IMG/VR virus record: IMGVR_UViG_3300034121_000852
Location: 1 to 25,600 of that record
DNA length: 25,600 nt
From: a virus
Direction: 5' to 3' (one strand)
Shown here: one piece after another, positions 3,318 to 11,294 of the stretch
How the letters are laid out: each line of letters begins with the position of its first letter
Numbering within the stretch: position 1 is the stretch's first letter
Made by a program: the position numbers and the translations under genes
The notes under the pieces: model-generated
Databases searched by the model: none
What the model was told of the DNA's origin: nothing
What the model saw: the letters and a program-made list of their open reading frames with translations, nothing else

Positions 3318-3345
3318 GTTATATTAATTGTTTTTATTTTGTTTC
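3318..3345 (-). promoter_or_regulatory. Phage promoter GAAACA-16-TATAAC (holin)
   Basis: GAAACA at 3345-3340, a 16-nt spacer and TATAAC at 3323-3318 on the minus strand. The holin ATG follows after 4 nt. The element overlaps the last codons of the GIY-YIG gene. Confidence 0.75.
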
Positions 3346-4013
3346 AAAATTTGTTTACGACCTAATTTCCAGCCTTCTGGAATAGAATCGCCTTTGTAAA
3401 TCTTTTGGCTTTCAATTCCATTTGTTATCCAACATTTTCCATATTGGGAATTATTTAAACCAACTTGATGACTATGACCTTTTAATTTTTCAATAGTTTC
3501 TAATTTGTGTTTCCTACCAGTCCAATTACCCCAAGCTTTTGGTATTCTTCTTCCCTCTTCAATCGCCTTATAATATGACTTTGATATAGACTTACTATTT
3601 ATTTTAGCATATTCTGGATCAGTTTCTCTAAGTAATTTTATAATAGCCATAGAATTTTTACCGCCTTTTGCTAATTGTTCTTTAGTTAAAAATTTAGAGC
3701 CATGGCCTCCTTCTCCACCAATTGCAAGATTCATACACATTGAATCATTTAAAAGATCCTGATTAACTAATTGTTTTTCTTTTTCTTTTAAAAGTTCTCT
3801 TGATTCTAAGAACTCTAATATCTCACAAGTATGATTTTCTTTGCCGTATTTGTTTATTGAGTACCAAAGTCTTTTACCTGAACCAATATAACCATCTTCT
3901 AAGTTGTCAGTTGAGTGCATTCCAATATAAAATTTATTTGTAATGATACAGATTGTTTTATAAATGTAATGATATTTTCTTCTAGTGGCTTGTTTCTTTT
4001 TTAACTTTTCCAT
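3324..4013 (-). CDS. GIY-YIG homing endonuclease (Seg-like)
   Basis: A 229-residue protein. The N-terminal GIY-YIG nuclease domain is marked by YHYIYKTICIITNKFYIGMHST (residues 14-35, with YIY and YIG as the two signature strands), DNLEDGYIGSGKRLW, and the conserved Glu region LEFLESRELLKEKE. After about residue 100 come G-rich and K-rich NUMOD-like DNA-binding repeats (GGEGGHGSKFLTKEQL; AWGNWTGRKHKLETIEKLKGHSH). Such free-standing enzymes cut target phage DNA to spread their own gene. It sits between the holin and tRNA-Thr and next to the permuted tRNA-like RNA, so homing could have shaped that region (inference). No intron is visible around it. Confidence 0.88.
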   Translation of the reverse strand: MEKLKKKQATRRKYHYIYKTICIITNKFYIGMHSTDNLEDGYIGSGKRLWYSINKYGKENHTCEILEFLESRELLKEKEKQLVNQDLLNDSMCMNLAIGGEGGHGSKFLTKEQLAKGGKNSMAIIKLLRETDPEYAKINSKSISKSYYKAIEEGRRIPKAWGNWTGRKHKLETIEKLKGHSHQVGLNNSQYGKCWITNGIESQKIYKGDSIPEGWKLGRKQILKQNKNN

Positions 4014-4051
4014 AAACTATATATCTATGTAAAAGGTAAAAAAGTTAGGTG

Positions 4052-4124
4052 AGCCTCCTGCCGGGATCGAACCAGCGACCTACTGATTACAAATCAGTTG
4101 CTCTACCAGCTGAGCTAAGGAGGC
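4052..4124 (-). tRNA. tRNA-Thr(TGT)
   Basis: Perfect acceptor GCCTCCT/AGGAGGC, D-stem GCTC/GAGC, anticodon stem ACTGA/TCAGT with loop TTTGTAA, and T-arm GCTGG-TTCGATC-CCGGC. Anticodon TGT. CCA is not encoded. It is separated from the array near 9-14 kb and lies next to the homing endonuclease. Confidence 0.95.
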
Positions 4125-4132
4125 AAAATAAC

Positions 4133-4191
4133 GGGATACACATTTTGGTTCATTATAGATTGAAGTTTTGTGTAGTTGCTGTAGGTATCCC
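4133..4191 (-). ncRNA. Stem-loop between permuted tRNA-like RNA and tRNA-Thr
   Basis: GGGATAC (4191-4185) pairs with GTATCCC (4139-4133) over a 45-nt loop on the minus strand, placing a 7-bp stem directly 5' of tRNA-Thr. No ORF and no U-tract. It may be part of the same precursor as the RNA at 4201-4323. Confidence 0.4.
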
Positions 4192-4200
4192 AATAAGGTC

Positions 4201-4323
4201 AGGTTTCTGTTTTTGCTTACCAGCGCGTTTACCAATTTCGCCACAATTATCTTTCGATAAGAGGTAGGACTCGAACCTACAATGTACCGGTTCTATATGC
4301 TGTTTTATTGCTGTAAGAAACCT
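4201..4323 (-). ncRNA. Circularly permuted tRNA-like RNA
   Basis: On the minus strand a tRNA 3' half comes first: T-arm GTAGG-TTCGAGT-CCTAC, then CTCTTATC. A tRNA 5' half follows: GATAATTG, TG, then D-arm GCG-AAATTGGTAAA-CGC. The two acceptor strands pair through a GAAA loop (TTATC-GAAA-GATAA; 6 of 8 pairs overall). The outer flanks are complementary: 4317-4323 with 4201-4207 (7 bp), extended by CTTACAGC pairing with GCTG(G)TAAG. This is a tRNA fold whose open ends are at the anticodon arm. I cannot assign an anticodon. Two fused tRNA remnants would be the dull alternative. Confidence 0.5.
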
Positions 4324-4333
4324 TTAATGCGTT

Positions 4334-4510
4334 TTACGCTTCTTTGTTCTTTTCAGAAACTTCTGTGCGTACTGCTTGTGCTAATGCTTTAACATCTTGC
4401 ATTGCTTTACGAACACGTGTGCCAGCTGCTTTATTTCCTTTTTCAAAGAATTTTTCTGCATCTGCTCTAGCTTCTTCTAGAACTGCGATGATTTTGTTGT
4501 AGTTTTCCAT
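4334..4510 (-). CDS. Histone H1-like protein (Hc1-type)
   Basis: A 58-residue protein of MENYNKIIAVLEEARADAE, then KFFEKGNKAAGTRVRKAMQD, then VKALAQAVRTEVSEKN. The KGNxAAGTRVRKAMQD core is characteristic of the histone H1/Hc1-like proteins common in flavobacteria and related bacteria, which bind DNA and help compact the nucleoid. In a phage it could act on host or phage DNA structure; that role is inferred. It was found by translating the minus strand after a phage promoter (4516-4543) whose -10 ends 5 nt before the ATG. The permuted tRNA-like RNA follows about 10 nt after its stop, probably on the same transcript. Confidence 0.82.
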   Translation of the reverse strand: MENYNKIIAVLEEARADAEKFFEKGNKAAGTRVRKAMQDVKALAQAVRTEVSEKNKEA

Positions 4511-11221: not shown

Positions 11222-11228
11222 ATTTAAC

Positions 11229-11283
11229 AGGATGCAGTTTTGCTTTTTCCAATAAAAGTTTTTAAATTTGCTGTATGCATCCT
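11229..11283 (-). ncRNA. 55-nt stem-loop between epimerase gene and tRNA-Ile
   Basis: AGGATGCA (11283-11276) pairs perfectly with TGCATCCT (11236-11229) over an A/T-rich loop that contains a further CTTTT/AAAAAG helix. It follows the epimerase stop and precedes tRNA-Ile by 8 nt. No U-tract follows, so a processing or stability element is more likely than a terminator. Confidence 0.45.
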
Positions 11284-11294
11284 AATTTCTTTAT

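What the first reader, a model, noticed from the sequence alone, without database searches (positions are those of the whole stretch)
4201..4323. A circularly permuted tRNA-like RNA in a phage
On the minus strand the T-arm and 3' acceptor strand precede the 5' acceptor strand and D-arm. The acceptor is closed by a GAAA loop (TTATC-GAAA-GATAA), and the flanks that would carry the anticodon arm are complementary to each other (a 7-bp AGGTTTC/GAAACCT stem plus CTTACAGC/GCTG(G)TAAG). Permuted tRNA genes are known from some algae and archaea; I know of none in phages. Aminoacylation would require opening of the GAAA loop. A non-decoding tRNA mimic is equally possible.
Basis: partly seen in the sequence, partly recalled or inferred. 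Interest (0 to 1): 0.8.

Follow-up and report, generated by a model that had tools for sequence, protein, structure and literature searches.

The report
Phage RNA hairpin carrying inside-out tRNA
This phage, and dozens of other large phages, encode a small RNA hairpin with a conserved CAGCAA motif whose tip is a tRNA-like fold read in circularly permuted order; it resembles the tRNA-mimicking bacterial Y RNAs but lacks their stem motif and their partner protein, so it looks like an undescribed phage tRNA mimic.

Summary
On the minus strand, 4323-4201 encodes a hairpin whose interior is a tRNA-Leu-like fold in permuted order: T-arm, 3' acceptor, GAAA loop, 5' acceptor, D-arm. One detail is wrong: the inner stem is the anticodon stem CTGGT/ACCGG, not CTTACAGC/GCTGGTAAG. 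ACAGCA is an invariant, apparently unpaired motif next to the outer stem.

It is not a deletion scar. At least 27 non-redundant phage elements of several tRNA types share the layout. Acceptor and anticodon stems covary at every pair. The frame (outer stem plus CAGCAA) also occurs without a tRNA inside, twice in this window. A covariance model of it hits 28 of 32 phage records and none of 85 control loci.

The closest known thing is YrlA, the tRNA-mimicking bacterial Y RNA. These elements fall below the YrlA cut-off, have a different stem, and come from phages without a detectable Ro60 gene. My best reading is an unprocessed tRNA mimic excised from tRNA operons. The window's copy has no usable anticodon, but some relatives keep a complete anticodon arm, so true permuted tRNAs are not excluded there. 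No expression data exist.

The parts
4317..4323 (-). P1 outer stem, 5' strand AGGTTTC
   Evidence: P1 covaries in standalone relatives, 8 of 8 pairs changed on both sides
4308..4316 (-). conserved UUACAGCAA motif beside the P1 5' strand
   Evidence: ACAGCA invariant in 21 aligned permuted elements; CAGCAA nearly invariant in standalone hairpins
4287..4291 (-). anticodon-stem 3' strand ACCGG (tRNA positions 39-43)
   Evidence: 5 of 5 pairs covary with 4219-4223
4281..4286 (-). short variable region TACATT; several relatives have a class II variable arm here
4264..4280 (-). T-arm GTAGG-TTCGAGT-CCTAC
   Evidence: 19-base match to the window's tRNA-Tyr T-arm region
4256..4263 (-). acceptor 3' strand CTCTTATC
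4252..4255 (-). GAAA loop closing the acceptor
   Evidence: loop varies from a few to about 30 nt in relatives
4244..4251 (-). acceptor 5' strand GATAATTG
4225..4241 (-). Leu-type D-arm GCG-AAATTGGTAAA-CGC
4219..4223 (-). anticodon-stem 5' strand CTGGT (positions 27-31)
4208..4218 (-). A-rich tail AAGCAAAAACA before the P1 3' strand
   Evidence: A-rich in most relatives
4201..4207 (-). P1 outer stem, 3' strand GAAACCT
4128..4196 (-). standalone CAGCAA hairpin directly downstream, ending 7 nt before tRNA-Thr
   Evidence: R1 67.4 bits, a training sequence; position
11224..11288 (-). second standalone CAGCAA hairpin, ending 6 nt before tRNA-Ile
   Evidence: R1 71.1 bits, a training sequence; RF01414 28.5 bits; position
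4051..4124 (-). ordinary tRNA-Thr(UGU) downstream; RNase P cleavage at its 5' end would free the hairpins (inferred)
4334..4510 (-). 58-aa Hc1 histone H1-like ORF directly upstream, same strand
   Evidence: PF07432 E 2e-22

Best explanation
The element is a small structured RNA of a so far undescribed phage family. A closing stem (P1) with an unpaired CAGCAA motif beside its 5' strand acts as a scaffold. The scaffold displays either a short hairpin or, as here, a tRNA-like domain joined through its anticodon stem. Because the RNA's ends lie in P1, the tRNA must be encoded in circularly permuted order, with its acceptor closed by a loop. It is transcribed with the phage tRNAs; RNase P and 3' tRNA processing would free it (inferred). 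It works without being opened or ligated, as a tRNA mimic: the elbow and acceptor region would engage tRNA-binding enzymes as decoy or recruiter, while P1-CAGCAA binds an unknown partner (inferred). Shown: structure, conservation, permutation, covariation, tRNA-array context. Inferred: transcription, excision, lack of maturation, partner, function.
For: Acceptor (7 of 7 pairs) and anticodon stem (5 of 5) change on both sides; 94.4% of cells paired against 71.6% in shuffles. P1 is equally supported. R1 hits 28 of 32 phage records and 0 of 85 control loci. All 30 inspected R1 hits lie on the tRNA strand, 11 of them within 20 nt upstream of a tRNA. Several tRNA types share the same frame. Acceptor loops range from tetraloops to about 20 nt among close relatives of the window element, and none encodes a correctly placed CCA. 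In the window's Leu group no decodable anticodon arm can be re-joined.
Against: No transcript, partner or phenotype is known. About 9-11 of 27 non-redundant elements, mostly of other tRNA types, keep a complete anticodon arm when the halves are joined (control mean 1.25, maximum 4), which a pure elbow mimic would not need. In one 68.5-kb contig tRNA-Leu(UAA) exists only in permuted form. The window's own acceptor has two mismatches, so this copy could be decaying. The relatives were found with a Leu-type pattern, so the survey is biased in tRNA type.
Confidence: 0.58

Rival explanations
1. True permuted tRNA genes: the P1-CAGCAA frame is a circularisation or splicing element, the anticodon halves are ligated, RNase P and RNase Z open the acceptor loop, CCA is added, and a decoding tRNA results.
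For: Asn GUU, Ile GAU, Thr UGU, Gly UCC, Pro UGG and Leu UAA members have complete anticodon arms, with a compensatory AGG/CCT to AGA/TCT change in the Asn members. The break repeatedly falls at position 28/29 or 29/30. Leu(UAA) is present only in permuted form in G037. 11 of 20 larger records encode an Rnl2-type RNA ligase.
Against: The Leu group, including the window, gives no decodable anticodon arm. Tetraloop-closed acceptors leave no trailer. No CCA is encoded. Most inferred anticodons duplicate an ordinary tRNA where the record is large enough to tell.
Confidence: 0.2
2. A genuine YrlA-type Y RNA that works with a Ro60 protein supplied by the host or by an unsequenced part of the phage.
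For: Same permuted tRNA-like topology; the YrlA model reaches 48.9 bits on relatives.
Against: 0 of 30 records over the YrlA cut-off, and 9 of 14 control genomes also ring below it because tandem tRNAs imitate the pattern. The YrlA terminal stem differs and CAGCAA is not in its consensus. TROVE absent in 42 records including 354-371 kb genomes.
Confidence: 0.1
3. A cis-acting processing, regulatory or mobile element of tRNA operons, with the permuted tRNA as cargo captured by duplication.
For: The frame exists without a tRNA and sits 4-12 nt upstream of tRNAs in many cases; its interior is interchangeable.
Against: Many copies are not next to a tRNA. The tRNA domains keep long-range covarying stems, so they are not passive cargo.
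Confidence: 0.09
4. A chance juxtaposition or deletion remnant of two ordinary tRNAs.
For: The window copy has an imperfect acceptor; tRNA arrays recombine.
Against: Homologous and independent elements keep the permuted layout with compensatory changes.
Confidence: 0.03

Closest known systems
YrlA, bacterial Y RNA (Rfam RF02553)
   Same: Circularly permuted tRNA-like domain (T-arm, closed acceptor, D-arm) carried on a stem formed by the RNA's two ends; permutation of a bacterial Y RNA relative to tRNA is documented in PMC11472068
   Different: Different terminal stem motif (CAGCAA), no detectable Ro60, below the family cut-off, several tRNA types, found in tRNA arrays, some members with an intact anticodon arm
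Circularly permuted tRNA genes of algae and archaea (PMC3978253)
   Same: 3' half encoded upstream of 5' half
   Different: Those are processed to ordinary tRNAs through a bulge-helix-bulge motif; here no such motif was identified, the window copy has no usable anticodon, and the frame is P1-CAGCAA
Dictyostelium Class I RNA (Rfam RF01414)
   Same: Short covarying terminal stem, CUUACAGCAA-like motif beside its 5' strand, variable AU-rich interior, CUG(U) end; the model scores phage hairpins at up to 33.7 bits
   Different: Below the 41.5-bit cut-off; eukaryotic; no tRNA-like interior described; reported as unique to dictyostelids (PMC7919456); homology not shown
Permuted two-piece tmRNA
   Same: T-arm and 3' acceptor precede 5' acceptor
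   Different: Here there is a canonical D-stem and no tag reading frame was recognised; no tmRNA match in Rfam or ARAGORN

Membership tests
YrlA / bacterial Y RNA | Permuted tRNA-like module on a stem formed by the RNA ends | tested here: met
YrlA / bacterial Y RNA | Match to the Rfam YrlA model above its cut-off of 69 bits | tested here: not met
   0 of 30 records over cut-off, best 48.9 bits; window element not matched at E up to 5
YrlA / bacterial Y RNA | Ro60 (TROVE) partner encoded near by | tested here: not met
   0 of 42 phage records, control genome rings; many records are fragments
YrlA / bacterial Y RNA | Binding to Ro60 | not testable with these tools
   needs a binding assay
Permuted tRNA gene | Complete anticodon loop with U33 on re-joining | tested here: not met
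   Not met for the window's Leu group; met for Asn, Ile, Thr, Gly, Pro and Leu(UAA) members elsewhere
Permuted tRNA gene | Processing to a joined, CCA-bearing tRNA | not testable with these tools
   no RNA data
Dictyostelium Class I RNA | Terminal stem plus motif beside its 5' strand | tested here: met
   standalone hairpins
Dictyostelium Class I RNA | Rfam RF01414 score at or above 41.5 bits | tested here: not met
   best 33.7 bits; 4 of 14 control genomes also have weak hits
tmRNA | tmRNA model match and tag reading frame | tested here: not met
   no tmRNA match

The most novel reading that the evidence does not exclude
Phages carry an undescribed RNA family (P1-CAGCAA scaffold) in which circularly permuted tRNAs of several types, some with complete anticodons, are matured by a bacterial route of tRNA circularisation unlike the archaeal and eukaryotic one, while others have become Ro60-independent tRNA mimics.
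Probability: 0.2. Interest if true: 0.92.

Novelty: new variant of a known kind. Interest (0 to 1): 0.74.

Why it matters
It extends permuted tRNA mimicry from Ro60-linked Y RNAs to a large set of phages in which no Ro60 was found, on a different and strongly conserved stem. Phage tRNA arrays would then contain a second class of gene that tRNA finders miss: the element is unannotated in the isolated phages GAP32, CBB, Kaldavass and XbC2. If the RNAs are decoys, they may bear on how phages survive tRNA-cutting defences. If they are processed, they would be a bacterial route to permuted tRNAs. The likeness to Dictyostelium Class I RNAs, if not convergence, would be unexpected.

Tried and rejected
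Single-sequence folding: z -0.89, not informative. Rfam scan of the window element: only weak chance-level hits. ARAGORN with introns on rotated elements gave scattered anticodons, discarded as artefacts. RNAalifold on the first standalone alignment found nothing because P1 was misaligned; re-aligned. RRM proteins as a possible partner: none in 20 records. RtcB: 1 of 20. Mycobacteriophage Bxz1 as a Ro60 positive control was not held. Chen et al. 2014 on YrlA is not in the library.

Full report
What is there. The window is a 25.6-kb IMG/VR virus record with 26 ordinary tRNAs, all on the minus strand. On that strand 4323-4201 reads P1 AGGTTTC, UUACAGCAA, a linker, ACCGG, TACATT, a T-arm, CTCTTATC, GAAA, GATAATTG, a Leu-type D-arm, CTGGT, an A-rich tail and P1' GAAACCT. 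This is a tRNA-Leu-like fold opened at the anticodon loop and closed at the acceptor. The single sequence is not unusually stable, and the proposed fold completed by free folding lies about 2.5 kcal/mol above the free minimum. The case therefore rests on comparison.

Relatives. A pattern scan without any pairing condition returned two classes. Tandem ordinary tRNAs mostly show 2-4 of 7 acceptor pairs; elements with ACAGCA and a P1 stem mostly show 6-7. Exact copies of the window's acceptor hairpin occur in L008, L069 and L075; L168 differs slightly. Close relatives keep the layout with compensatory acceptor changes: CTCTCCA/TGGAGAG, CTCCTCA/TGAGGAG, CTCCCTA/TAGGGAG, CCCTTCA/TGAAGGG. In a 21-sequence alignment, selected by sequence pattern and P1 only, all 7 acceptor and all 5 anticodon-stem pairs show changes on both sides. 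94.4% of cells pair, against 71.6% in shuffles and 44% at most when slid.

The frame. ACAGCA motifs with a P1 stem occur three times on the window's minus strand and not on the plus strand. Two are standalone hairpins that end 6-7 nt before tRNA-Ile and tRNA-Thr. Sixteen standalone hairpins give 8 of 8 covarying P1 pairs. The model built from them, R1, finds 77 hits in 28 of 32 phage records (some are training sequences) and none in 703 kb of control tRNA-array loci. All 30 R1 hits inspected are on the tRNA strand; 11 lie within 20 nt upstream of a tRNA. I infer that tRNA processing releases these RNAs; this was not tested.

Diversity. Parsing gave 38 permuted elements in phages, 27 after 90% de-duplication. 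D-arms of Leu, GCTC, GTCT, Gly-like and other types occur. The parser required pairing in P1, T-stem, acceptor and D-stem, so its pairing percentages are partly circular; one search is the cleaner test. Re-joining the halves gives a 5-bp anticodon stem with U33 and a purine at 37 in 11 of 27 (control mean 1.25, maximum 4). I regard two of these as doubtful: a near-duplicate L167 pair and L191:5054. The clear ones are Asn GUU, Ile GAU, Thr UGU, Gly UCC, Pro UGG and Leu UAA. Three Asn members keep the arm through an AGG/CCT to AGA/TCT change. The window's Leu group gives none. Most inferred anticodons also exist as ordinary tRNAs in the same record; in contig G037 Leu(UAA) exists only permuted, but that contig is probably incomplete.

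Comparison with known RNAs. Relatives score up to 48.9 bits with YrlA, but the match covers the tRNA-like module and not the stem. No record passes the 69-bit cut-off, and 9 of 14 control genomes ring below it. Ro60 is absent from 42 records, including five of 354-371 kb. The topology is that of the Y RNA whose solved structure superposes on tRNA with a circular permutation (PMC11472068). Phage Y RNAs have been proposed: a Listeria phage study suggests them beside an Rsr-like gene and cites predictions in mycobacteriophages (PMC12282133). The role of YrlA is itself open; one suggestion is competitive inhibition of an anticodon nuclease (PMC7790460). The standalone hairpins also resemble Dictyostelium Class I RNAs. 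The RF01414 model hits 23 of 30 phage records at E 0.1 or better, the best at 33.7 bits, against 4 of 14 controls, and most of the strongest hits coincide with R1 hairpins. Class I RNAs are described as unique to dictyostelids (PMC7919456). I report the likeness without claiming homology.

Mechanism. The mimic reading is preferred for the window copy for four reasons. It has no usable anticodon. Its acceptor is capped by a tetraloop. No parsed member encodes a correctly placed CCA. Close relatives tolerate very different acceptor loops. The permuted-tRNA reading stays open for the members with intact anticodon arms. The two may coexist, for example functional ancestors and mimic descendants.

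Limits. No expression data; many records are fragments; the survey is biased towards Leu-type D-arms by its search pattern; the key Y RNA paper could not be read here.

Noticed in passing
L108 near 5774, L080 near 237, L024 near 7576: A permuted tRNA-Leu-like module appears to sit inside the anticodon loop of another, otherwise complete tRNA; no CAGCAA frame was noted and no Ro60 was found in these records.
   Followed up: partly
L111, L107, L004, L097, L074: Further permuted Leu-like elements on other outer sequences, some flanked by AAGCTCAAGCTC-like repeats; L111 has TCCA after the acceptor 3' strand.
   Followed up: partly
window 11224-11288, L034:4536-4591, L034:5934-5987, G022:15401-15455: Phage standalone hairpins resemble Dictyostelium Class I RNA (RF01414) in stem, motif and CUG end, below the family cut-off.
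   Followed up: partly
window 4334-4510 (-): Histone H1-like Hc1 protein encoded directly upstream of the element.
   Followed up: no
L316 (contig G037): tRNA-Leu(UAA) found only as a permuted element in a contig with 32 ordinary tRNA calls.
   Followed up: partly
window 3801-4134: BLAST matches to phage homing-endonuclease records (73-79% identity, e.g. HY03) run over the start of the 229-aa ORF 3324-4013 (no Pfam hit) and the tRNA-Thr region.
   Followed up: no
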